Shown piece by piece: positions 27,082-39,277 of a stretch of DNA of 39,278 nucleotides. The DNA is taken from positions 1 to 39,278 of the forward strand of contig PGYL01000035.1 in NCBI GenBank assembly GCA_002839645.1, given 5' to 3'. The notes under the pieces were generated by a model. That model searched no databases, had not been told where the DNA came from, and saw nothing but the letters and a program-made list of their open reading frames with translations. The first letter of the stretch is position 1. The number at the start of each line of letters is the position of its first letter. Origin of the DNA: Methanomicrobiales archaeon HGW-Methanomicrobiales-2 (GTDB taxonomy: Archaea > Halobacteriota > Methanomicrobia > Methanomicrobiales > Methanoculleaceae). The translations under genes and the position numbers were made by a program.

Positions 27082-28035
27082 TCACGCGAGCACCAGGATC
27101 CGGCGGGTCAGGCTCTTGTGCACCCGCTGCTCGTGCTCCTGCAGGATGGTGAAGTGGCGGGCGGCGATTGCCGTGATGTCGCGGTGCGTGACGACGACCG
27201 CGCGCCTTCCGGGCCGGAGGATGCGACGGATCTCGGCGAGCGATCCGTCGTAGAGCCGGTCCATGCTCTCTCCGTGGATCCGGACCGACTGGCCGTAGGG
27301 GAGATCCGTCACGACCGCGTCGAGGGCATCGTCGCAGACCGGGACCGCCGTGGCGTCGGCGATCACCACGTCCGACCCCGGGAGGTTCTGCCGGTAGCCG
27401 GCGACCATCGCGGGATCGAAGTCGCTCCCGAGAACCCGGACGCCGATTTCCCGGGCCTCAAGGAGGATCCCGCCGGTGCCGCAGAAGGGGTCGAAGACCA
27501 CTTCGCCGGGGCGGACCAGGGAGATGTTGACGAGCGCCCGGCCCATCCGGGGCATCATCACGCCGGGGTGGAAGAACGCCCGGCGCATAGGGTTCCTGGC
27601 ATCGAACCCCCCCCGGTCGATCCGGAAGATGACGCGGCCGAGGTAGCAGCGGTCCTCCGAGATTACGGCGCGGTACTCTTCGATTGGATCGCGGAGCGAG
27701 ACCGGACCGGCGATCAGGGTCCCGATCAGCCGTTCCAGCTCGAGGTGCGTGGCATCCATCCGGCTTCCCTGGATCGTCTTCACCCTGCCCGCAAACGGTT
27801 TATCGGTCCGGATAGCAAGGTCGCGGAGGAGGGCCGCGAACGCCTCCCGGGTGGGCTCGCACTCCCCGAGGTACTCCATCACCACGTGCGTCAGGGCAAG
27901 GCGCCGGGCGGCCTCCGGGTCCGGGCACTCGGCAACAGCGACCTGGGCCCGCCTATCAAGGACACGGCCCACGCACTCCAGTTCGGAGACCGGGAGATCG
28001 GGGTGCTCGCCGGAGAGTTCGAAGAGCAGTTTCAT
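27082..28035 (-). CDS. tRNA (guanine(10)-N2)-methyltransferase, TrmG10 type
   Basis: A 317-residue archaeal TrmG10-like enzyme that methylates or dimethylates the exocyclic amine of G10 in tRNA with SAM. The first 150 residues form the THUMP-containing RNA-binding part (MKLLFELSGEHPDLPVSELE, RIDRGGF near 138). The methyltransferase part begins near NPMRRAFFHPGVMMPRMGRALVN; VFDPFCGTGGILLEA is the SAM-binding motif I near 180-194, LGSDFDP motif II, and TDLPYGQSV near 246-254 is the N-MTase D/N-P-P-Y-type catalytic motif. The end RRAVVVTHRDI...RRILVL fits the fold. ATG 28035 has TGAGG just upstream. Single gene, between an unknown membrane protein and relics that open the accessory island. Confidence 0.92.
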   Translation of the reverse strand: MKLLFELSGEHPDLPVSELECVGRVLDRRAQVAVAECPDPEAARRLALTHVVMEYLGECEPTREAFAALLRDLAIRTDKPFAGRVKTIQGSRMDATHLELERLIGTLIAGPVSLRDPIEEYRAVISEDRCYLGRVIFRIDRGGFDARNPMRRAFFHPGVMMPRMGRALVNISLVRPGEVVFDPFCGTGGILLEAREIGVRVLGSDFDPAMVAGYRQNLPGSDVVIADATAVPVCDDALDAVVTDLPYGQSVRIHGESMDRLYDGSLAEIRRILRPGRRAVVVTHRDITAIAARHFTILQEHEQRVHKSLTRRILVLA

Positions 28036-28776: not shown

Positions 28777-29544
28777 TTATATCTTTTTACCAATATAAAA
28801 CACGTATCCATAATACCGTTTGTATTTTGAATACAAGTCCGCCTCGCGCCTCATGAATGCAATCATATCCTCAACGGCCTTATTTCCCGCATATTTCTTC
28901 AAGAACTCCTCCTGCCTTGCTTTCTGCGGGACAAAATAATTGTCTATCCAGCAGCTTTCAGGCAGCGTAAATGCGGCAACAGGAATGTAACCTGCTTTTT
29001 GCATGATGGAGATATTATGCGCTATCGTGCCGATCTCAGGAACTGCGTCTAACCACCACTTCTCAATCTCAGCGGGGCGTTCGTCGGTGTACCATGACTC
29101 GTAGGTTACGGCAACATAGCCATCTTTTTTGAGGAAGCGTCTCCAGTGATTCAAACCTTTTTCAAAACCTATATTCGCAATAGCCCCCTCAGACCATATA
29201 AGATCGAACTCCTCGTTCTGAAACGGCAGATTATCCATTGAACCGACAATACCATTTACCCTGTTCTGCAAACCAAGTTTTGCGGCTGTTGCGTTGAGTT
29301 TATCAATCGAGCCGGGGCAGAGGTCGAGGGCGGTGATGGTTGCCTTCGTATTCTGAGCCAGAACCATTGTTTGAAAGCCTGTCCCGCAGCCTAAATCGGC
29401 AACTTTTGTTTCGTTTGAAAGGTTGCCGATAAAGCCCAATGCCCTGATGGTTTCTTCGGCGTTGCCGGGCCCCTGCCGTTCAAGTTCCGTGAAAAATTCA
29501 TTGATGAGGGCAAAATCAAAGTCGTAGATTGTTATCTCTTCCAT
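28777..29544 (-). CDS. Class I SAM-dependent methyltransferase, bacterial-looking
   Basis: A 255-residue methyltransferase. Motif I is VADLGCGTGFQTMVLAQ near 48-64, motif II TALDLCPGSIDKLNATA, then GSMDNLPFQNEEFDLIWSEGAIANIGF (motifs III-IV) and an extra C-terminal region with FTLPESCWIDNYFVPQKARQEEFLKKYAG. This set is common in gut-type Bacteria and some methanogens; substrate unknown (small molecules likely). Two ATGs exist; ATG 29544 is chosen because AAGGAG lies seven nt before it, while the one at 29550 is too close. G+C content is clearly lower than in genes before 28035. It follows an rsgA relic by 11 nt, suggesting both came in as one bacterial segment. Confidence 0.85.
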   Translation of the reverse strand: MEEITIYDFDFALINEFFTELERQGPGNAEETIRALGFIGNLSNETKVADLGCGTGFQTMVLAQNTKATITALDLCPGSIDKLNATAAKLGLQNRVNGIVGSMDNLPFQNEEFDLIWSEGAIANIGFEKGLNHWRRFLKKDGYVAVTYESWYTDERPAEIEKWWLDAVPEIGTIAHNISIMQKAGYIPVAAFTLPESCWIDNYFVPQKARQEEFLKKYAGNKAVEDMIAFMRREADLYSKYKRYYGYVFYIGKKI

Positions 29545-29555
29545 TGCCATACTCC

Positions 29556-29750
29556 TTACCTTCTAATGATGGCATTGGCTTTTTCTGCCTTAACGATTTT
29601 TGCCATGCCTTTACGCTTCCGCTCCTCTGCCGCAAGGTAGCTTTCAGTGTCCTCAGCATAAGCGTTTTCAACCTTTAGCGTTTGATAGGACTGCCAACGC
29701 TCTGATGATTAATCCCCGCTTTCAATGAAGGCGATTACAGCGCAACCAGG
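29556..29750 (-). pseudogene. rsgA: 3' relic of rsgA (ribosome biogenesis GTPase), with internal stop
   Basis: Sixty-five codons in one frame: PGCAVIAFIESGD, a TAA, then SSERWQSYQTLKVENAYAED, TESYLAAEERKRKGMAKIVK and a short end. This matches the C-terminus of RsgA: the last zinc-ligand cysteine in EPGCAV, the A-I-E-x-G turn, S-x-E-R-x-x-S-Y and a basic tail. The internal stop and the loss of everything upstream of PGC make it a pseudogene. RsgA is mainly bacterial, so with the neighbouring methyltransferase it marks an imported fragment. No other gene lies in 29551-29788. Confidence 0.7.
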
Positions 29751-29788
29751 TTAACCCGGGAATAACCTTTTCATCTATCGAAGCTGAG

Positions 29789-30829
29789 ATGAATGAAGCC
29801 ATGCCGGAACTGACGGTAAAGACAATCAAGGGCAATAAATACCTCTACCTCAGAGATAAGGTTAAAGTTAACTCAAAATCGCTGCCGCTTCAGATATACA
29901 TCGGAAGACTCGAAACGGTAGCCCGAGAGGACTTCTTATCGAAACTGTCCAAACTCCAGACTCTGAGGTTAACAACATACCTCGATTACCGGCTGGAGCA
30001 TTACTCCTTCACGGCCCTCGACAGAACCCGGGCCGTCGATCTCGAGACCCTTCGTTACTTCTCCGGACTTTTCAAGGAACTCTACCCCGATGAGAGCGAG
30101 CGGTACATGGATGCGATGTATCTCAGATATGTCCAGGGCACGACGGCGATCGAGGGGAATACCATCAGTCTCCGGGAAGCGCAGGAACTCCTGGAACATA
30201 ACATCTCTCCGGCCGGGAAGAAGATGGATGAGGTTTATGAGATCCTCAATTTCATCAATCTCCGAAGATATCTCGAAGAGTATTCCGGGGATATAACAGA
30301 GAGACTCATCAGGAAGATCCACGAAATACTGATGAATGAGGTCCTCCGGAACCCGGGAGAGTATCGGAACATCCAGGTTGGCATCGAGCAGATGGACTAT
30401 GAACCACCTCCCGCGATCCTCGTCCCTGAGGAGATGCGTGCTCTCATCGGGTGGTACCGGCAGAATAAACGGCACCTGAATCCGTTCGAACTCGCCGTAG
30501 TACTCCACACAAAATTTGAGATGATCCATCCGTTCGTCGATGGAAACGGAAGGGTTGGACGGGCGTTGATGAATTTAGTCCTGGAGCGGGCCGGTTATCC
30601 AACGCTCTACCTGGGGTTGGAACACCGGTCGGCCTACCTGGGCGCGCTCACAAAGGCAGATGACGGGGACTATAGACCGATCATCGAGACACTCTATGCC
30701 ATCTACCGGGAACAACACGGGCGTATCGCAGATGCGGTCGGGCAGAATCTTTCCGACGGAAACAGCAGGATCCGGGAGGAGAACGCCAGGCTCGTCCGGC
30801 AGTTCGCTGAACTGAAGAGAAAGGCCTGA
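29789..30829 (+). CDS. Fic family protein (AMP-transferase fold)
   Basis: A 346-residue Fic protein. The active motif HPFVDGNGRVGR (247-258) is complete, so it can be expected to transfer AMP or another phosphoryl group to a hydroxyl side chain of a target protein. An inhibitory helix motif TTAIEGN (118-124; S/T-x3-E-G/N) lies N-terminal of the Fic core, making it a class II, self-inhibited protein that needs no separate antitoxin. The first 45 residues (KTIKGNKYLYLRDKVK) form a beta-rich extension seen in archaeal Fic proteins; the C-terminus (about 310-346) is a charged helix. The start may be ATG 29789 or the ATG four codons later. Neighbours are island genes without clear link. Target unknown. 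Confidence 0.9.
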   Translation: MNEAMPELTVKTIKGNKYLYLRDKVKVNSKSLPLQIYIGRLETVAREDFLSKLSKLQTLRLTTYLDYRLEHYSFTALDRTRAVDLETLRYFSGLFKELYPDESERYMDAMYLRYVQGTTAIEGNTISLREAQELLEHNISPAGKKMDEVYEILNFINLRRYLEEYSGDITERLIRKIHEILMNEVLRNPGEYRNIQVGIEQMDYEPPPAILVPEEMRALIGWYRQNKRHLNPFELAVVLHTKFEMIHPFVDGNGRVGRALMNLVLERAGYPTLYLGLEHRSAYLGALTKADDGDYRPIIETLYAIYREQHGRIADAVGQNLSDGNSRIREENARLVRQFAELKRKA

Positions 30830-31419
30830 TACCCGGTTGAGCAGCCGCCCGGCGTGCAGGGCGATCTGGGTTCAGATCCCGGCCGGGATGGTTCTCGTTT
30901 TGGTCGAATATTCATCAAGGTAGATCCTATTTCCATAATGCCACGAATCTCCTTTGCGTGACACCAGCAGCTCCCGTTAAAGCGGATAAACGGATCGACC
31001 ATTCCGTAAGACGCGATCTGGTAATACAGAGGGACCTTGGGTGCCCGACAGGAAAGGGGGGCTTCTACCTGAGTTCCGAGCTATTAAGCACATATCTATT
31101 TAAATTGTGGTTAAATCTCAATAAAATCGGGTATTTGACGGCATTCAAGTTGATTGATATGCATAATATTAAGCAAATTGATCCCAGTTTAAATTGTCAG
31201 ATACAAACAATTTACTCATTTATTGGATAAATTTGACCAAATGGATGTTTAATGCTTATGAAAGAATAGTGCATGTACCTAACTCCCCGAGAGAGTCAGA
31301 GATATACTAAAGGATTTCGGCTAAAATTACAAGGGTTTTGTGATTTTTTTATTTATTTACCGGGAGGAACTGGTTACTGTAAATTATAGGGAGAGAGTTC
31401 TTTCTATGCCCGCTGTGGT
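30830..31419. other. Non-coding, A+T-rich gap without recognisable gene
   Basis: About 590 bases between Fic and the SPFH operon. 30866-30882 can fold like a tRNA T-arm (CTGGG/CCCGG around TTCAGAT), but no full tRNA surrounds it. From 31080 the sequence is very A+T-rich with T-runs near 31340-31360. Frames here are short and lack family features. Confidence 0.5.
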
Positions 31420-32169
31420 TTAGCGGCCGAGCTGGCTGGTTACTATTAATTTTTGAACATCATTTTGAATGCACATGAAGATTGCCAAACGTTCACTATC
31501 TGGGGAACCACGGGCTTCACTTATTGCGCCTCTTACTTCATCTAGGAGGTTACTTATGAGTTCATATTCATCGTCTTGCATTTGACTTGCAGAAACGCGA
31601 CTCCGAATTTGATTTCGGATCGCAGAAAGATCATCATCGATTTTTCTCTGTAAAGCATTACTTTCATTACTAGATGGCAGCTGACGGAACTCGATCAATG
31701 TTTGCTGTACCGTGTTTAATAGAGCCATTTGCTCGTCTCGCGGACGACCATGGATAACTCCCTGTCCCTCCTGTCCGATAGACCACATAGCCGCTGATAC
31801 TAAGATCAGCAGTAACCATTTACTAAGAACTATCCATAGATATACTAGATCATAATAGATATAATTGAAAAACAAAAGGAATATAATAGCTATTGCCACA
31901 CTTGCAACCAAGAAGATGCTAATTGTACTTTCGATACTAATGTGCATTGCCACAGGCAGTTTACTTGTTGTCTTTTTTGTTAAAAGTTGAAAATTATAAA
32001 TTCCACATATCCCTGTTATTATTACCATCAAAGATACATCAATCATTGCGATCCAATATGAGTAGCGAGGCATATCTGGTGCGAATGACAGGAAGATGCC
32101 GACGGTAAAAAACAGAGCAACAAGTAAAGCAGCGACTCGAATCGAGAAATTACGTTTGTTATAGGTCAT
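31420..32169 (-). CDS. Four-helix membrane protein with cytoplasmic coiled coil, last gene of SPFH operon
   Basis: A 249-residue protein of unknown family. Four membrane segments are visible at about 10-28 (VAALLVALFFTVGIFLSFA), 38-58 (IAMIDVSLMVIITGICGIY), 78-105 (ISIFLVASVAIAIIFLLFFNYIYY) and 108-128 (LVYLWIVLSKWLLLILVSA). The remaining 120 residues are hydrophilic and helical (LNTVQQTLIEFRQL, NALQRKIDDDLSAIRNQIRS, DDEYELISNLLDEVRGAISEA), probably a cytoplasmic coiled coil. The ATG has GGGGG ten nt upstream. It lies 37 nt after the SPFH gene and is the last of four co-directed genes; it could be the membrane anchor of that system, as YdjH-type membrane proteins are in Bacillus. Confidence 0.75.
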   Translation of the reverse strand: MTYNKRNFSIRVAALLVALFFTVGIFLSFAPDMPRYSYWIAMIDVSLMVIITGICGIYNFQLLTKKTTSKLPVAMHISIESTISIFLVASVAIAIIFLLFFNYIYYDLVYLWIVLSKWLLLILVSAAMWSIGQEGQGVIHGRPRDEQMALLNTVQQTLIEFRQLPSSNESNALQRKIDDDLSAIRNQIRSRVSASQMQDDEYELISNLLDEVRGAISEARGSPDSERLAIFMCIQNDVQKLIVTSQLGR

Positions 32170-32206
32170 TTTTGATTACCCCCACAGATTTGTTATAATC
32201 GATAGT

Positions 32207-33343
32207 TCAAAGGGATTTACCACACTCGGAACAGAACTTCGCCTTTTCAGGAACTTGAGCACCACATGAAGGACAGTTAGTAATCGATAGGATTTTTGCA
32301 CCACAATGGGGACAAAATTTTGAATGAGTTGTCAAAGTCTGTCGGCATGAAGGACACACAGACACTGTCATAAGATTTGCACCACATTTAATGCAGAACT
32401 GACTACCTACAGGAATGTTTGCCTGACATTTTGGGCATATCAATTCAGATGAATGACTCAATGGCGTCTGTGTAACTGATTGTGTTGCTTGTTCAGTCAT
32501 AGAAGAGAATGGTCCAGCCATCTTAGCACCTATTCCAAGCCCAATGCCAGCGCCCATTAAAGTCCCAGGAGCTCCGGGATTTTTTGCAGCTTCCTCCATA
32601 ACATCGAAACCTCGCATCATTTGGTATCGCTGGTCACCGAGTCGTTCAATTTCCCGAGCTTTAAAATCAATCTCCTGGATTTTTTTCAAGTCTTCAGTTG
32701 GGATGGTGATTGATGTGATAAAGAATTTGAGCAACTCAAGACCGTATTTAGCGAACTCGTCCCTTAGGCGCTCTTCAACTAATTGTGATATTTCATCTAT
32801 CCGGGTCGTGATAGTAGCAATCGAAAGGTTCCTTTCTACAACGTATTTTGCTACACTGTCTTTTACTCTGGTGAGAATCACCCCGCGGAAATATTCGAGT
32901 ACCATATTTCCTTTCCATTCGGGCATAGTTCCCACAATTTGCGTGACAAATAACCGTGAATCAGCAACTCGAAGTCCGAACTGTCCAAAACAACCCACGG
33001 GAACAAGCACCCCGTATTTTGGGTCCTCAACCGGTATGGGTGTTAGAGTGCCCCATTTGTAATCAAGACGGGAGACCTGATTGACGTAATATATCTCCGC
33101 GGTGAATGGAGTCTCTCCGCCAAATGGTAAATTAACAAGTTTCCCCAATAATGGTAAGTTTTTTGTTGATAGTGTGTGGGTGCCGGGCCCGAAAACATCC
33201 AGAGCTTGCCCACCCTTGAAAAATATTGCCTCCTGACTTTCATTTACAATTAGTTGTGCTCCCATTGTGATGTTCTCTTTATCATACTTCCAGACCAAAA
33301 GGTCTGGAGAACCGTCATGTTTAATGCGATCTATAAGTGCCAT
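32207..33343 (-). CDS. SPFH-domain protein with three C-terminal zinc ribbons (YdjI-like)
   Basis: A 378-residue protein. Residues about 1-225 form an SPFH/band-7 domain of the YdjI or virion-core type: ITMGAQLIVNESQEAIFFKGGQALDVFGPGTHTLSTKNLPLL near 26-66, then VVERNLSIATITTRIDEISQLVEERLRDEFAKYGLELLKFFITSI near 167-211. A helical linker (KKIQEIDFKAREIERLGDQ) and a glycine-rich stretch (GAGIGLGIGAKMAG) precede three CxxC...CxxC zinc ribbons at about 303-378 (ICPKC/FCIKC, VCPSC/FCPHC, NCPSC/FCSEC). SPFH proteins build membrane-associated oligomeric scaffolds; B. subtilis YdjI belongs to the pspA operon. GGAGAGGAT precedes the ATG. It starts 15 nt after the SHOCT/zinc-ribbon gene, clearly one operon. 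Confidence 0.88.
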   Translation of the reverse strand: MALIDRIKHDGSPDLLVWKYDKENITMGAQLIVNESQEAIFFKGGQALDVFGPGTHTLSTKNLPLLGKLVNLPFGGETPFTAEIYYVNQVSRLDYKWGTLTPIPVEDPKYGVLVPVGCFGQFGLRVADSRLFVTQIVGTMPEWKGNMVLEYFRGVILTRVKDSVAKYVVERNLSIATITTRIDEISQLVEERLRDEFAKYGLELLKFFITSITIPTEDLKKIQEIDFKAREIERLGDQRYQMMRGFDVMEEAAKNPGAPGTLMGAGIGLGIGAKMAGPFSSMTEQATQSVTQTPLSHSSELICPKCQANIPVGSQFCIKCGANLMTVSVCPSCRQTLTTHSKFCPHCGAKILSITNCPSCGAQVPEKAKFCSECGKSL

Positions 33344-33358
33344 AGTAAATCCTCTCCA

Positions 33359-35152
33359 TTACTGTGCGAATAAAACCTCTTTTGTGCCGATACTAAGCGA
33401 CCTGATGTCAAAATTTGAAAGAGCAATGCTGTTGGATGAGGCCAAAATCTCCCTTCTTTCTGATTTTTGTGTGTAGTACCTCGCAACAACTACTGGCAGA
33501 TATGTTAATTGCAATTGTCTAACGTGCCCCCCAGCATAACCTTGTGTTGATGATACAAATTGTTTCATATATTTTAATGCATCATTAGAACCCACCACGG
33601 GAACTACCGCAGGCGTTGAGTATCCGATAGTTGTACGAGACCTAATTGCACTATAACATTGCTCACTCAAAGGATCACTTGAGGTAATAACGAAGCATTG
33701 TTTGTTATGACGCATAGCTTCCGTTAAGATAAGTCCAGATGCCATTGATCCTTTTTTGAATATCACACCTTTCTGCTGTGAAAAATCTAGTTCAGCAAGC
33801 CAGAATGGTAGTAATATCTTCCTTTCTCTTTCCACCGATTCTTTTCCACTTAAGAACGAGGATTTTACCAAGGCCACCATTCTTCCTTCAGCCCAGCCAA
33901 AGTCAGACACTATAGGCAAAGAAGCTTCACCAGATATCGATTCCATATGTAGAACCAGATTAGATAGGAAAGCTGACAACCACCTTAAATCCGAGGAGGG
34001 AGTCTGTGCTTTTCCAACCATCTCTTCGAGGTTAGCCAAAAAGATAGTAAAGGGCATCCCCGTTTCAGCGCCGCATTGACCGTAAAATCTCACACAGGTG
34101 GCAAGAATGCGGACTGTGTCTGCGTCATTGCGCGTTCCTTCAGCAGCGGGTACAGTTTCTCTTGGTTTCACTTCAGTTGCTTCAATTGCAGATGCAGTCT
34201 GCTCAAGCTTTACGGCTATTAACTCCAGATTATCTGCTACATAATCCGTCATCACTCCATCTGTACTAGAAAACAGATCCTCTAGAGTGTTTACAGCCTC
34301 TTCGAGTAACCTCATCCTAGTTGCCAGAGCATCTGAAAATTCAGCTAACGATGGATCAATAGACGATACTAATTGATTGGTCGTATTGTACAATTCATTA
34401 AGGGCCTGAAGGTTCGTTTTTGCTTTATGAAAACCATCAGGTGTCGGGCTAGCAAGATGGTGGCGGACATTAGACAGGTAACCCGCCTCAAGACATCGTA
34501 CTTCCAGAGTGTGCAACTCATACTTCTCCTTCTCACCTATTGCAAAAACCCTGATTTCGGGTGATTGAACACGCACCACGGTTTCTTTTATTTTATCAAC
34601 TAAATAATTCAAATCGGGCACTGATCGTAGAGTCTGATGAAAGGGAGATGAAGGGAGTCCGGTAAGCAGGGGGAACGTAAACAGAGACTGATAGCGAGTC
34701 AGGCTGAATACATCGGTTGCACGATCAGCTGCATTCTTCAATGGAGGTAATAACTTGTCGTTGAATATGAACTTGCGAGATGCTTCGTCAACCGTGGTGC
34801 TAATTCCTGCATTTCCGGCTACCTGGGAAATCCATTTCCTGATATCGTTTTTAAGGCGATCCATTTCCTCTGATGCTGTCTGTAGGGCAAATGTCCCGCC
34901 GCAATAATCGCAAATGACATTAACCTGAGAAGGATCACTCGGTAACGGTAAAGGTGCCATACAACCCGGACATTGTAGGGAAACAGCTTCCTTCGGCAAA
35001 GCCGATAAAGCCGCTGAGATAGGTTCTTCATCATGTCCAACTTGTGTACTGAACTTCGCCTTTAGTTGTTTATAGGTACCGATATCAATTTCACCAAGCG
35101 CCACTCGCCGATCAAGTGCATCCAGAACTTTTTCCATTTCTATATTGTCCAT
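33359..35152 (-). CDS. Large protein with SHOCT-like helix pair and zinc ribbon
   Basis: A 597-residue protein. Residues 7-34 (EKVLDALDRRVALGEIDIGTYKQLKAKF) look like a SHOCT domain, the short helical motif with L...G.I....Y..LKAKL. Residues 58-90 hold one zinc ribbon: C61-x2-C64 and C81-x2-C84 (CPGC...CDYCGGTF). The remainder is mixed helix and strand with no enzyme motif that I recognise; the last 170 residues (PFWLAELDFSQQKGVIFKKG ... YLPVVVARYYTQKS) look beta-rich. Zinc-ribbon proteins of similar place (YdjG) accompany SPFH proteins in Bacillus psp operons, but length and sequence differ. A strong GAGGTGA precedes ATG 35152. Second gene of the operon; its own TATA at 35208-35220 may add expression. 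Confidence 0.72.
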   Translation of the reverse strand: MDNIEMEKVLDALDRRVALGEIDIGTYKQLKAKFSTQVGHDEEPISAALSALPKEAVSLQCPGCMAPLPLPSDPSQVNVICDYCGGTFALQTASEEMDRLKNDIRKWISQVAGNAGISTTVDEASRKFIFNDKLLPPLKNAADRATDVFSLTRYQSLFTFPLLTGLPSSPFHQTLRSVPDLNYLVDKIKETVVRVQSPEIRVFAIGEKEKYELHTLEVRCLEAGYLSNVRHHLASPTPDGFHKAKTNLQALNELYNTTNQLVSSIDPSLAEFSDALATRMRLLEEAVNTLEDLFSSTDGVMTDYVADNLELIAVKLEQTASAIEATEVKPRETVPAAEGTRNDADTVRILATCVRFYGQCGAETGMPFTIFLANLEEMVGKAQTPSSDLRWLSAFLSNLVLHMESISGEASLPIVSDFGWAEGRMVALVKSSFLSGKESVERERKILLPFWLAELDFSQQKGVIFKKGSMASGLILTEAMRHNKQCFVITSSDPLSEQCYSAIRSRTTIGYSTPAVVPVVGSNDALKYMKQFVSSTQGYAGGHVRQLQLTYLPVVVARYYTQKSERREILASSNSIALSNFDIRSLSIGTKEVLFAQ

Positions 35153-35207
35153 GGTTTCACCTCACGCTATATTTCGATAAAGCATTAATTGAGTTAATTT
35201 TTCACAA

Positions 35208-35246
35208 ATGATATATATGTTATGTACTGGTTCTGCTTCAGAACCA
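35208..35246 (-). promoter_or_regulatory. Internal promoter and inverted repeat in the SPFH operon
   Basis: ACATATATATCAT on the minus strand (35208-35220) is a good TATA box 56-68 nt before ATG 35152. Just upstream of it TGGTTCTG (35228-35235) and CAGAACCA (35239-35246) form a perfect 8-bp inverted repeat with spacer CTT. It may be an operator for an internal promoter; there is no T-run that would make it a terminator of the first gene. No gene is in the 234-nt gap. Confidence 0.5.
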
Positions 35247-35386
35247 ATTGAATATCTCTTTATAGGCAGCAATAGTGTTGAATGACCTCTAATCCCTCCA
35301 TTAAATGATTTTTTGAGTTCTCTCCCACCAATGTTCAGCTTATACTAGACAGTCATTATCTTACAACAGGCTCTGCTACTCACTCA

Positions 35387-36385
35387 TTAGTGTCTGTGTG
35401 CTACACGCTCAAGTGCGCGTAATCTTTCATTATGATTCGTGAGCACATCGTTAGTTTGATTAAATAGTTGATTAGCCCAAGCACGAACTTCATCAGCACG
35501 CATCGTAGCATATCGGTCTGCTTGATTCTCAATAGCAGAGCCACAAACAGTGCAGACAGTTACATGGCCTGCATTGTCAATCATACGTAAGTCATCACTT
35601 GAGGATTCTAAGAGCTGGGTGTGATAATCCTCAGTTTCTGCAGGATAATACTTAAAGAATACATCTTCTCCTTGCATTTCCCGACCGCACATCCAACAGT
35701 GAGATTTTGATGATACCTTTGCAATATGGTCGTCAACAGTTTTTGACCAATCTACAACCATAGCTTGACGAAAACAAGATGCCGCCTTCTGCATGTGATC
35801 ATGTGCTTGTACGGGTGAAGACAGAACAACTGAAAGAGCAGAATAATAATCTGACAACCCTTCACAGTAAAAAGCACGCAGCATTGCCTTTTCCACTGGC
35901 CCCTCTAATTGAAGTCTCTCCGAGATATGAAGCGGAGCGTTACCAAGTTTCATGAAGCCTTCAGCCGCGTTCATATATTCTAGAGTCATATCAGCATAAT
36001 TGCCACACTTTTTTGCCTGTTGTTCGTATTGTAAGGATCTAAGTTCCGCGATTAGAGGGGAAGTCTGGATCATTTCATCTTGGCTTCCTATGCATGGAAC
36101 TTCAGTTATAGGCTCCAAGACCTGGATTAATTCAGGAAGAGTATCGAGATTACGTTTGTCAATTAGTTCATACAATGTGGCATTAGCTTTTGCGAGTCTG
36201 GCCATGTCTTCATTTCCTTCCTGGAGAAACATCTCGCAAGCCTTCGAAAAATGTTTAACAGCAGAGGGATAATCCGGTGGTTGAAGCAGAACACCCTTCT
36301 CATAAGCTCTTTGATATTGTTCCTGCGCATTGAGTCCAATTCCAACTTCTTTGCCAACTGCTTTCACTCTATCAAAGATACCCAT
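35387..36385 (-). CDS. TPR-like helical protein with zinc finger, first gene of SPFH operon
   Basis: A 332-residue protein starting MGIFDRVKAVGKEVGIGLN, an amphipathic N-terminus reminiscent of membrane-binding starts of PspA-type proteins (resemblance only). Residues about 20-215 are paired helices with TPR-like spacing (AQEQYQRAYEKGVLL, YPSAVKHFSKACEMFLQEGN, ADMTLEYMNAAEGFMKLGN, HDHMQKAASCFRQAM). Then HCWMCG (about 232-237) and, 50 residues later, VCTVCG supply a four-cysteine zinc site, ending in a helical tail. AGAGGAGAT lies eight nt before ATG 36385. It heads the four-gene operon, separated by 234 nt from the second gene. Likely a scaffold protein that joins the zinc-ribbon and SPFH partners; no family name recognised. 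Confidence 0.72.
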   Translation of the reverse strand: MGIFDRVKAVGKEVGIGLNAQEQYQRAYEKGVLLQPPDYPSAVKHFSKACEMFLQEGNEDMARLAKANATLYELIDKRNLDTLPELIQVLEPITEVPCIGSQDEMIQTSPLIAELRSLQYEQQAKKCGNYADMTLEYMNAAEGFMKLGNAPLHISERLQLEGPVEKAMLRAFYCEGLSDYYSALSVVLSSPVQAHDHMQKAASCFRQAMVVDWSKTVDDHIAKVSSKSHCWMCGREMQGEDVFFKYYPAETEDYHTQLLESSSDDLRMIDNAGHVTVCTVCGSAIENQADRYATMRADEVRAWANQLFNQTNDVLTNHNERLRALERVAHRH

Positions 36386-36420
36386 ATTATATCTCCTCTG
36401 TTACGGCCACTGTAATTGAG

Positions 36421-36484
36421 CCATTAAACTTTCATATTATATTAAGGGCCCATTAAGTTTTCCATTATATCCGGAGGCCATTAA
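36421..36484 (-). promoter_or_regulatory. Promoter of the SPFH operon with repeated TTAATGG sites
   Basis: CCATTAA (TTAATGG on the coding strand) occurs at 36421, 36450 and 36478, 29 and 28 bp apart, within a larger imperfect repeat (CCATTAA-x-TTT-x-ATTATAT). The TATA element TTAATATAATATG lies between the first two. Sites flanking a TATA box suggest a repressor. 36485-36640 has no recognisable gene. Confidence 0.45.
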
Positions 36485-36640
36485 GGTAATAAAACTCAAT
36501 AAACCATCATTTTAAGTAATAGAAGCATCTCAGCTCTCTGTACTTCCTTGCTCCTCGTGAGAGTTTCGGCGGCGATCTCTCGTTTCTGCTCCGTTTGGGC
36601 ATAACTCCAGGAGGTATACAATCCCCTCTATCGAGCGGTC

Positions 36641-37261
36641 ATGGGCCCTATCATTGAGCATTCGAGAAACGACGGCTCTTCTGATGAAACAGGCTTTTTC
36701 CTTCCTCATCCGGCAACGCTGCACCATTTTGTGAAATATCATCTTGACGTAGACGGGCTGAAGTGGATCATGGCACTGGTTAGGACTGCTCTCATACGAT
36801 GGGCAGATAAAGATTGGAACGGTATCATCGCTCAATCCCTCTGAAGGCATCGCGGTATGACGGCTATGCACTGTTTCATCCGCATTACTCGGTTAAATGG
36901 ATAAAGCCCACATCTTCCACCGGGGCAGATGTCCACTGGGAATAGCATATTCACCGAGAACCGGTGCCGATACCACGCACCTCTTACTACTTATCCAGAC
37001 CGTTGCGTCAACGCAGCCCAGCCTCATGGCATTTCTGCGGGATACAGGCTATACTTCTTTCGATGCTCATGCTCGGTCTGGTCTCACTCGCATGCGCGTC
37101 CCTGCATTGCTCTGCGTGAAGAAGCAGTCATTCAGGATGAGGGGATCGAGCGCCACAGTCAGCACCGGTCAATAAACTCTGAGGACAAATCCGAACAAAA
37201 GGCTCATCGGTGGGACGAGACTAACCTAGAGAGCGAGTGGATAAAAGGGAGCGATAAGTAA
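36641..37261 (+). pseudogene. Decayed transposase-like gene
   Basis: Pieces of a protein in at least two frames: LKWIMALVRTALIRWADKDW around 36770-36840, then (another frame) CPLGIAYSPRTGADTTHLLL ... MAFLRDTGYTSFDAHA about 36927-37070, then the first frame again with LREEAVIQDEGIERH near 37120-37160. The order and the wording (C-P-L-G-x-x-Y-S-P-R, then a D-x-G-Y motif) resemble a DDE transposase, but I cannot name its IS family. Stops and frame changes show it is dead. Identification is tentative. Confidence 0.4.
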
Positions 37262-38099: not shown

Positions 38100-39277
38100 T
38101 AGTGCCCTTTGTCTCCTAATTCTCTAGGATCATCGGGTAGAGTCGCTTGAGTTTCCTCCTCGCATCGCTTGTGGTAAACTGCCAATCAACACCATTCGGT
38201 TGCTGTTTCTGCCCGGATTGCTTCGAGAGTCGGGATTCTGCGGTTCAAACATTGGCGCGTCAGGACACTGAGTTCAATCTCAGCGATGTTGAGCCAGCTC
38301 CCATGCTTTGGCGTGTGATGGATCTCCAGCCGGTTCAGCAGGTTTCTTGCTTTTTCGGGAGGGAACGTCTCGTAGAACGCTCCCGGGACATGCGTATTGA
38401 GGTTATCACAGACCAGGATCACCTTCTCTGCATCGGGATAGTCCACTTCGAGAAGGTGTTGTACCTGGCGAGCCCAATCTATCTTGGTCCGCGTTTCGGC
38501 TATTGCTATCCGGCGCCACAGTCCCAGCGGTTCGGTGAACATGAACCCGCAGACGACCCCGTTTCTCCGGTACTCATAGTCCCGCCGTTCCGGACGACCG
38601 GGCTGTGCCGGCATCGGTTCCCGCACCTCGGCATGCAGCTGGATCGGCTGTTCGTCCATGCAGATGACGGGGTATGCCGGATCAAACGGTCGCTGGTAGA
38701 CCTCCAGCACGTCTTCCATCGCGGCGACAAAGTTCCCGTTTTCGGCGGGGGGAATAACCCACTGCTTTTTGGTATGTGGCTGGAGCGCGTTTTTTTAGCG
38801 TCCGTTCGACGGTCTTGATTGAGATGGTGTCGACGATCTCCAGCTCCACGAGGCGATCGGCAAGTAACTGCAGCGTCCAGCGGGATCGACCATCCGGCGG
38901 TTTGCTGCAGGCGATCTGGATGAGACGGGCTTCGCCGGCGCCGTCCAGTTTCCGAGGACTTGGGGGTTCGTCGCGGAGTTTCCGGTGCAGCGCCGCGTCG
39001 AGCCCCTGCGTGACAAACGCTTTGCGGACGTTGAACACGGAGAGCGGGTGACACCGGACAAGCTCGGCAACTTCGGGATCAGGTTTGTCGGCATGGAGCA
39101 GGATGTAGGCATGCCGGATCGTGGAGGCAGAAGATTTGCCACGGTGAACGAGAGCTTCGAGGAACGAACGCTGGTCGTCGGTAAGGGTAACGGTGTACTT
39201 GCTCTTCCCCATGAAGGGATGTATTCAATAACAAACAATATAATTGTTCTTATAAAAATGTGGGACAAAAAGCACTA
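38100..39277 (-). mobile_element. IS630-type insertion sequence with both inverted repeats
   Basis: The ends are CTAGTGCCCTTTGTCTCC (38099-38116) and, inverted, CTAGTGCTTTTTGTCCC (39278-39262 read on the minus strand), imperfect terminal inverted repeats. Each is bounded by TA within CTAG, as expected for IS630/Tc1-type insertion at TA. The element is about 1.18 kb and holds one transposase gene with frame changes. It sits in a relic of a second transposase. Confidence 0.85.
38116..39212 (-). pseudogene. IS630 family transposase, two frame changes
   Basis: About 365 codons in three frame segments. Segment one (39212 to about 38795) has the helix-turn-helix region (FLEALVHRGKSSASTIRHAYILL, SVFNVRKAFVTQGLDAAL). 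The frame shifts at a run of seven A residues in CTAAAAAAACGC, after TVERTLKK; the continuation NALQPHTKKQWVIPP leads to the DDE domain with VICMDEQP, LVCDNLNTH and LNIAEIELSVL (D, D, E). Near 38190 a second +1 change leads to DWQFTTSDARRKLKRLYPMI and the stop at 38116. One A too many would explain the first break; recoding or transcript slippage on the A-run is possible. The second break has no such run, so the gene is probably inactive. Confidence 0.82.

What the first reader, a model, noticed from the sequence alone, without database searches (positions are those of the whole stretch)
31420..36385. Four-gene SPFH / zinc-ribbon / SHOCT / TPR operon resembling YdjGHI but without PspA
The SPFH protein with three zinc ribbons, a zinc-ribbon SHOCT-like protein, a TPR-like zinc-finger protein and a four-helix membrane protein are co-directed with short gaps. 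In Bacillus, YdjI (SPFH plus zinc ribbon) works with PspA in envelope stress. Here the set is complete in an archaeal island, beside mobile-element relics and a Fic gene, with no PspA. It may be an archaeal membrane-stress or anti-virus module in which the first gene (MGIFDRVK...) replaces PspA.
Basis: partly seen in the sequence, partly recalled or inferred. Interest (0 to 1): 0.75.

Follow-up and report, generated by a model that had tools for sequence, protein, structure and literature searches.

The report
Acquired bacterial SPFH membrane-scaffold operon
A methane-producing archaeon carries a foreign-looking four-gene operon whose two core proteins, a membrane-scaffold (SPFH) protein and its membrane partner, belong to a bacterial pair that needs no PspA; two further zinc-finger proteins, one essentially new, sit with them, and what the set does is still a guess.

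Summary
The operon is real: four minus-strand genes at 31420-36385, of low GC (42% against 64%), shared gene for gene with one other Methanoculleus (UBA77), and all under purifying selection. It is not YdjGHI. The SPFH protein is a true Band_7_1 member, but in a tree of 40 sequences it falls with full support inside a bacterial clade, apart from the archaeal YdjI-like proteins and from the Bacillota YdjI/YdjG ones. In that clade 9 of the 10 other members sit beside a membrane protein (TM segments, usually plus a helical tail) that is a homologue of the 249-aa gene. A zinc-ribbon or zinc-ribbon/TPR gene is usually next; the 332-aa TPR/zinc-finger protein may be its counterpart. PspA is absent from this genome, but it is also absent or unlinked in the bacterial relatives, so nothing need replace it; the 332-aa protein shows no PspA similarity. 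YdjH (TPM) is absent. The 597-aa protein has a YdjG-like zinc ribbon and, by weak evidence, a YdjG-like C-terminal domain around a novel helical middle; its SHOCT label is not confirmed. Best reading: a horizontally acquired, PspA-independent SPFH membrane scaffold with zinc-ribbon adaptors. An immune role is possible, not shown.

The parts
35387..36385 (-). Gene 1, 332 aa: N-terminal TPR/Sel1-like helical region, C-terminal treble-clef/zinc-ribbon-like region with two CxxC pairs (C230-C233, C278-C281). Possible counterpart of the ZnR-TPR proteins of bacterial operons (domain order reversed).
   Evidence: Sel1 E 2.5e-4 for residues 1-220; YhfH/treble-clef hits to the C-terminal part; dN/dS 0.127; AF2 pLDDT 40, not usable
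33359..35152 (-). Gene 2, 597 aa: N-terminal helical hairpin (SHOCT-like, unconfirmed), zinc ribbon (res. 57-97), novel all-helical middle (about 95-405), C-terminal alpha/beta domain (about 414-597) with weak similarity to the YdjG-type / archaeal 195-aa ZnR protein domain.
   Evidence: ZnR to YdjG family prob 89%; collinear matches in phmmer; C-terminal domain ranks c3 and c0 (YdjG-like clusters) 1st and 2nd of 249 but at ~5% probability; above 200 of 200 shuffles; pLDDT 41
32207..33343 (-). Gene 3, 378 aa: SPFH (Band_7_1) domain with three C-terminal zinc ribbons; member of the bacterial SPFH clade that travels with a 4TM/helical partner.
   Evidence: PF13421 E 4.7e-50; tblastn 34% to Butyrivibrio plasmid, 39% to Bacteroides; tree 100/100
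31420..32169 (-). Gene 4, 249 aa: 4-5 hydrophobic segments plus ~110-aa helical cytosolic tail; predicted membrane anchor of the SPFH protein.
   Evidence: hhalign to the bacterial 4TM/helical family prob 95.4, E 1.9e-8; hmmsearch E 3.3e-8 (UBA77 copy 0.0027)
35153..35386 (-). 234-bp gap between genes 1 and 2, conserved with UBA77; holds one TTTAATGG; possible second promoter.
36411..36490 (-). Upstream region of gene 1: repeats of ~29 bp with ATATAAT and YTTAATGG (3 copies in 65 bp); candidate promoter/operator. Conserved in outline in UBA77.
   Evidence: 5 matches in window, 1.16 expected
29789..30829 (+). Fic protein gene, neighbour in the island, opposite strand; not part of the operon.
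   Evidence: PF02661 E 4.3e-24; found at the same site without the operon in other Methanoculleus

Best explanation
A horizontally acquired, PspA-independent SPFH membrane-scaffold module. SHOWN: the operon is foreign in composition, found in only two of the Methanoculleus genomes searched, and under purifying selection; its SPFH protein and 4TM/helical protein are homologues of a bacterial gene pair found in Bacillota, Bacteroidota, on a plasmid and on a phage contig. INFERRED: the soluble SPFH protein oligomerises and is brought to the membrane by the 4TM protein, as YdjI is by YdjG/YdjH; the zinc ribbons at its tail dock cytosolic adaptors (the 332-aa TPR/zinc protein and the 597-aa zinc-ribbon protein), which give the module its specificity; the assembly senses or stabilises damaged membrane, or gates a response to it.
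For: SPFH and zinc ribbons. Tree of 40 SPFH rows: window and UBA77 sit inside a 12-row clade with 100/100 support, away from the 16 archaeal YdjI-like rows (100/100). In that clade 9 of 10 non-window members have the membrane partner next door: L133, L134, L135, L136, L138, L074, L080 intact, L073 split into two ORFs, L132 with only a 140-aa ORF; L137 lacks it. 249-aa homology: hhalign 95.4%, E 1.9e-8. A gene with a zinc ribbon or CxxC pairs, often with TPR, lies beside the pair in L073, L074, L080, L132, L133, L134, L135, L136, L137, L138. GC 42.3% against 63.6% in the window's first 28 kb; UBA77 46.9% against 64-66%. dN/dS 0.12-0.27. Membrane recruitment of YdjI by YdjG/H is published (PMC8581546, passages read).
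Against: No function was tested for any member of this clade. The UBA77 copy of the 249-aa protein scores no better (0.0027) than one unrelated membrane protein. Neither the 332- nor the 597-aa protein has a full-length sequence homologue outside Methanoculleus in what was searched; calling them adaptors is inference. The 234-bp gap may put gene 1 under its own promoter. Structure models were too poor to use.
Confidence: 0.6

Rival explanations
1. Immune (anti-virus) module: the SPFH/4TM pair is a membrane platform for exchangeable zinc-ribbon effectors or sensors, spread on mobile elements; in the archaeon the 332- and 597-aa proteins are the sensor/effector arm.
For: Clade members beside a ZnR-TPR-TIR protein (L138, TIR_2 E 1.5e-10), beside an EssC-like FtsK/SpoIIIE ATPase with FHA (L137), between phage tail genes and a ZnR-TPR gene on a phage contig (L080), on a plasmid (L073). 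Window copy lies in a variable site with Fic and a second methyltransferase.
Against: No PADLOC model fits the four proteins or the relatives; TIR and EssC partners are single cases; no recognisable enzymatic effector in the window operon; other members are in ordinary chromosomal settings (L133-L136).
Confidence: 0.2
2. Divergent YdjGHI (PSP-type) operon in which the 332-aa protein replaces PspA.
For: PF13421 SPFH with zinc ribbons; 597-aa protein has a YdjG-like zinc ribbon and a weakly YdjG-like C-terminal domain; MGIFDRVK start.
Against: SPFH outside the YdjI-like clades; no PspA match in the 332-aa protein or genome; membrane partner is not TPM/YdjH; N-terminal helix not specially amphipathic.
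Confidence: 0.1
3. Relative of the archaeal SPFH/zinc-ribbon loci linked to ESCRT ('Meth_adaptin' systems), acting in protein sorting or vesicle formation.
For: Archaeal SPFH with coiled coil and zinc ribbon occurs with adaptin-appendage/ZnR proteins in Methanobacteriales ESCRT loci (PMC10936438, section 5 part 1 and passages read).
Against: No Vps4 or ESCRT-III match among the neighbouring genes scanned with Pfam; SPFH belongs to the bacterial clade. ESCRT genes elsewhere in the genome were not searched.
Confidence: 0.05

Closest known systems
Bacillus subtilis pspA-ydjGHI operon (YdjI SPFH-zinc ribbon)
   Same: Band_7_1 SPFH with C-terminal zinc ribbons, co-encoded membrane protein, zinc-ribbon partner with (weakly) YdjG-like ends
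   Different: No PspA, no TPM protein (YdjH); membrane partner of another family; SPFH in another clade; two extra cytosolic zinc proteins
Bacterial SPFH - 4TM/helical - ZnR(-TPR) operons (Bacteroides finegoldii NZ_OY725907, Butyrivibrio pNP21 NZ_CP146965, Bacillota L133-L138, phage contig L080)
   Same: Same SPFH clade, homologous membrane protein directly after it, zinc-ribbon/TPR protein in the set
   Different: Window adds the 597-aa protein; the TPR/zinc protein is upstream and has the zinc part at the C-terminus; archaeal host
Archaeal YdjI-like operons (L050-L065: up to three ZnR proteins, ~114-aa 4TM, ~178-aa helical, SPFH-ZnR)
   Same: Same kinds of parts; the 4TM and helical pieces may be the split form of the 249-aa protein (third and first of 125 clusters for the bacterial 4TM profile, but only 2-5% probability)
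   Different: Different SPFH clade (26-31% identity); no TPR/zinc protein seen; 597-aa architecture absent
Meth_adaptin ESCRT loci with SPFH-CC-ZnR (PMC10936438)
   Same: Archaeal SPFH plus zinc-ribbon partners
   Different: Window shows no Vps4/ESCRT-III alongside

Membership tests
YdjGHI / PSP-type operon | Band_7_1 SPFH with C-terminal zinc ribbons (YdjI) | tested here: met
   PF13421 4.7e-50 and three zinc ribbons
YdjGHI / PSP-type operon | PspA encoded in the operon | tested here: not met
   no PF04012 in the operon or genome
YdjGHI / PSP-type operon | YdjH: TPM domain membrane protein | tested here: not met
   no TPM match in any of the four; 249-aa protein belongs to the 4TM/helical family
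YdjGHI / PSP-type operon | YdjG: zinc ribbons, NTF2-like domain, TM | tested here: inconclusive
   597-aa: ZnR similar, C-terminal domain weakly similar, no TM
YdjGHI / PSP-type operon | SPFH phylogenetically with YdjI | tested here: not met
   separate 100/100 clade; the tree's YdjI-type rows come from look-alike operons, B. subtilis YdjI itself was not in it
Bacterial SPFH-4TM/helical module (defined here) | SPFH in the clade | tested here: met
   12-row clade 100/100
Bacterial SPFH-4TM/helical module (defined here) | 4TM/helical protein directly downstream | tested here: met
   prob 95.4; E 3.3e-8 (window), 0.0027 (UBA77)
Bacterial SPFH-4TM/helical module (defined here) | Zinc-ribbon(-TPR) partner | tested here: inconclusive
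   332-aa has weak TPR and zinc parts but no sequence match to bacterial ZnR-TPR proteins (3.4%)
PspA/ESCRT-III (for the 332-aa protein) | PspA_IM30 profile match | tested here: not met
Known anti-phage defence systems (PADLOC 2.0.0) | model match to core genes | tested here: not met
   only marginal, partial hits to the four proteins
SHOCT-domain proteins (597-aa) | SHOCT Pfam match | tested here: not met
   none at E up to 10 for residues 1-60

The most novel reading that the evidence does not exclude
A mobile, PspA-free SPFH platform common to bacteria, a phage contig and archaea: an SPFH ring plus a dedicated 4TM anchor to which exchangeable zinc-ribbon adaptors plug different outputs (TPR, TIR, EssC-like secretion ATPase, and in this archaeon the new 332- and 597-aa proteins), working as membrane-damage surveillance that can trigger immunity.
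Probability: 0.25. Interest if true: 0.72.

Novelty: new variant of a known kind. Interest (0 to 1): 0.48.

Why it matters
SPFH proteins are widespread and poorly understood in prokaryotes, and the zinc-ribbon type is known mainly through its tie to PspA. A clade with its own conserved membrane partner and no linked PspA says the SPFH scaffold can work on its own terms and gives a small genetic unit to test. That it reached a methanogen, whose membrane lipids are of the archaeal ether type (established knowledge), and has been kept under selection in two species suggests the mechanism does not depend on bacterial lipids or peptidoglycan. Exchangeable zinc-ribbon partners, one with a TIR domain, would connect membrane-stress scaffolds to immunity.

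Tried and rejected
REJECTED: (1) PspA replacement by gene 1 - no profile match and no special N-terminal helix. (2) Origin from Pelotomaculum - contig L002 is 99.5% identical to UBA77 and runs into the same Methanoculleus core gene, so it is a misbinned contig. (3) Viral origin - none of the four proteins has a relative in viral contigs at close range or, for the 597-aa protein, in phages or plasmids. (4) Phage records with SPFH hits: of 7 two were opened (L164, L165); they look bacterial, not phage, so only L080 counts as phage-borne. (5) SHOCT label - not confirmed.

LED NOWHERE: AlphaFold models of the 597- and 332-aa proteins (pLDDT 41 and 40), so no fold search was made; PDB sequence searches with A2, A3, A4 found nothing; hhalign of the 332-aa protein to 249 neighbour clusters gave at best 8.6%. 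The C-terminal YdjG-like reading of the 597-aa protein rests on rank and shuffles, not on a significant probability.

ROWS DROPPED: the tree left out L144 (stop codons in frame), L053 (broken frame), L070 and L072 (no SPFH ORF picked by my filter). The null for the 4TM profile used every second cluster, 125 of 249. The island comparison used 17 of the 27 other genomes matched, about 10 kb on one side only. SPFH genes: the 15 above about 170 bits (misbinned copy aside) were followed, of the 35 listed; neighbourhood tables were cut by the output limit.

LITERATURE: searches (open-access library only) listed no paper that I could recognise as describing an SPFH-4TM-ZnR/TPR module; listings were judged by title and abstract start. 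Passages read: PMC8581546, PMC11237479, PMC7159879, PMC9239133, PMC2636767, PMC10936438 (and section 5 part 1). 'SHOCT', 'treble clef', 'EssC' and IS-family labels beyond the named Pfam hits are recalled.
Full report
OBSERVATION. Order of transcription: 332 aa (36385-35387), 597 aa (35152-33359), 378 aa (33343-32207), 249 aa (32169-31420). Genes 2-4 are tightly packed (15 and 37 bp); gene 1 is 234 bp upstream. The window is the whole of contig C10 of a 2.78-Mb genome that is 99.5% complete; the nearest named relative found is Methanoculleus sp. UBA77.

IT IS NOT CHANCE. UBA77 (L003) has four genes of identical lengths and order; the DNA block 31290-36676 is 87.5% identical over 5.4 kb, upstream region included. 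dN/dS between the two copies is 0.127, 0.120, 0.157 and 0.265 for the 332-, 597-, 378- and 249-aa genes, against 0.171 for the neighbouring core methyltransferase gene. A third copy, L002, filed under Pelotomaculum, is 99.5% identical to UBA77 and continues into the same core gene, so it is a misbinned Methanoculleus contig.

IT WAS ACQUIRED. GC is 42.3% in the operon and 63.6% in the first 28 kb of the window; in UBA77 46.9% against 64-66%. The site beside the core methyltransferase gene (27082-28035) is variable: in 17 other Methanoculleus loci (of 27 available) none has the operon, and 7 (L147-L151, L153, L156) have sequence of the Fic gene and/or the second methyltransferase gene. In UBA77 the operon sits directly beside the core gene without Fic. 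The 597-aa gene is in 2 of 150 genomes of the order; the 332-aa gene in 1 of 344 of the phylum (UBA77 gave no match there, so it was evidently not in that draw).

WHAT THE PROTEINS ARE. The 378-aa protein is SPFH (PF13421, 4.7e-50) with three zinc ribbons. Its closest relatives are bacterial: 34% identity over 93% to a Butyrivibrio plasmid protein (5e-67) and 39% over 67% to a Bacteroides protein (2e-59), against 22-31% for the archaeal and Bacillota YdjI-like proteins collected here. In 383 genomes of its own phylum a profile of this group finds 20 genomes at E<=1e-20, but apart from the window's own gene (666 bits) none exceeds 176 bits; in 329 genomes of the phylum of G426, 31 match, and genes in G726, G666, G537, G493, G454 and G501 score 340-473 bits.

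THE TREE. With 40 SPFH rows, window plus UBA77 lie inside a 12-row clade (100/100) made of Bacillota-type, Butyrivibrio-plasmid, Bacteroides and phage-contig proteins; the 16 archaeal YdjI-like rows form another clade (100/100); SPFH proteins beside YdjG, TPM or PspA genes lie outside both. Long branches (L074, L066) make the finer placement unsure.

THE MEMBRANE PARTNER. In that clade the next gene is a membrane protein, typically 229-261 aa with four TM segments and a helical tail: intact in L133, L134, L135, L136, L138, L074 and L080, split in two ORFs in L073, 140 aa in L132, absent in L137: 9 of 10. The 249-aa window protein is a member: hhalign probability 95.4%, E 1.9e-8 to a six-member family alignment, while its best score against 249 neighbour clusters was 2.1% and the family's best against 125 other clusters was 4.8%. 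A profile without the archaeal copies finds the window protein at 3.3e-8, the UBA77 copy only at 0.0027, equal to one unrelated membrane protein.

THE ZINC PROTEINS. Beside the pair most members carry a zinc-ribbon protein, often with TPR: 192 aa in Bacteroides, 464 aa in Butyrivibrio, at least 176 aa (cut by the contig end) in the phage contig, 278 aa in L137, 790 aa with a TIR domain in L138. The window's 332-aa protein has the same two ingredients in reverse order but no detectable sequence similarity to them, so equivalence is inference. The 597-aa protein has a YdjG-like zinc ribbon. Its C-terminal part shares PFW and YLP motifs with YdjG-like proteins in collinear order; the two YdjG-like clusters rank first and second of 249, and the score beats 200 of 200 shuffles for the archaeal 195-aa family (22.3 against a maximum of 21.1), although the formal probability is only about 6%; against the larger YdjG cluster c0 the score (19.8) did not exceed the shuffle maximum (21.4). 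The helical middle (about 300 aa) has no convincing match.

PspA. The genome has none. Among nine genomes with the module, four have PspA and five do not (one of the five, UBA77, is 80% complete); by their coordinates none of the PspA genes lies near the SPFH gene. Archaeal and Bacillota SPFH-ZnR operons without adjacent PspA are common in the loci opened here; L146, outside the clade, has a PspA-like gene next to SPFH. So absence of PspA does not call for a substitute.

MECHANISM. Shown: conserved pair, membrane segments, zinc ribbons, selection. Inferred: by analogy with YdjI, which needs YdjG/YdjH for membrane recruitment (PMC8581546, passages), the SPFH protein is held at the membrane by the 4TM protein, and zinc-ribbon proteins are its clients or adaptors. 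Its trigger and output are unknown; membrane-damage surveillance is the most economical guess, immunity the main rival (L138 TIR, L137 EssC-like, L080 phage contig; all single cases).

COMPARISON AND NOVELTY. YdjGHI-like in parts, not a member: PspA and TPM were tested and not met, and the SPFH clade differs. The bacterial SPFH-4TM-ZnR arrangement was not named in the passages read of PSP surveys (PMC11237479, PMC9239133), of the SPFH family survey (PMC2636767) or of the ESCRT survey (PMC10936438), nor recognisable in the literature listings; most subscription papers are not in that library. I rate it a new variant of a known kind.

Noticed in passing
L138:3415-5787: ZnR-TPR-TIR protein of 790 aa (TIR_2 E 1.5e-10) after an SPFH-4TM pair of the same clade: possible link of SPFH scaffold to TIR immunity.
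   Followed up: partly
L137:3334-9987: SPFH gene of the clade between a ZnR-TPR gene and a 1547-aa FtsK/SpoIIIE protein with FHA (EssC-like): possible tie to type VII secretion.
   Followed up: partly
L080:1151-5986: Phage tail sheath, tube and XkdN-like chaperone genes followed directly by SPFH, 4TM/helical and ZnR-TPR genes on a 6-kb IMG/VR contig.
   Followed up: partly
L050-L065 (e.g. L055:7192-11747, L056:4010-8563): Conserved archaeal operon of three ZnR proteins, a ~114-aa 4TM protein, a ~178-aa helical protein and SPFH-ZnR, no PspA; 15 helical and 12 short ZnR members collected.
   Followed up: partly
window 36411-36490 and 35298-35305: YTTAATGG occurs three times in 65 bp upstream of gene 1 and once before gene 2; 5 in the window, 1.16 expected, 2 of 100 shuffles reach 5.
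   Followed up: partly
window 28777-30829: Second methyltransferase (PADLOC mad2 model E 3.4e-19, possibly only the generic fold) and Fic (SoFic model 4.5e-37), a recurrent pair at this variable site.
   Followed up: partly
window 38186-39212: DDE_3 and HTH_32 parts of one transposase in two overlapping frames: frameshifted or broken copy near the contig end.
   Followed up: no
L002 (JAHDOA010000010.1): Contig in a Pelotomaculum MAG that is Methanoculleus DNA (99.5% to UBA77): misbinning.
   Followed up: yes
L164 (MT835670.1), L165 (MT839532.1): Records deposited as bacteriophage that read like bacterial chromosome (ABC transporter-like genes; SPFH behind an ORF with a PspA-like stretch).
   Followed up: partly
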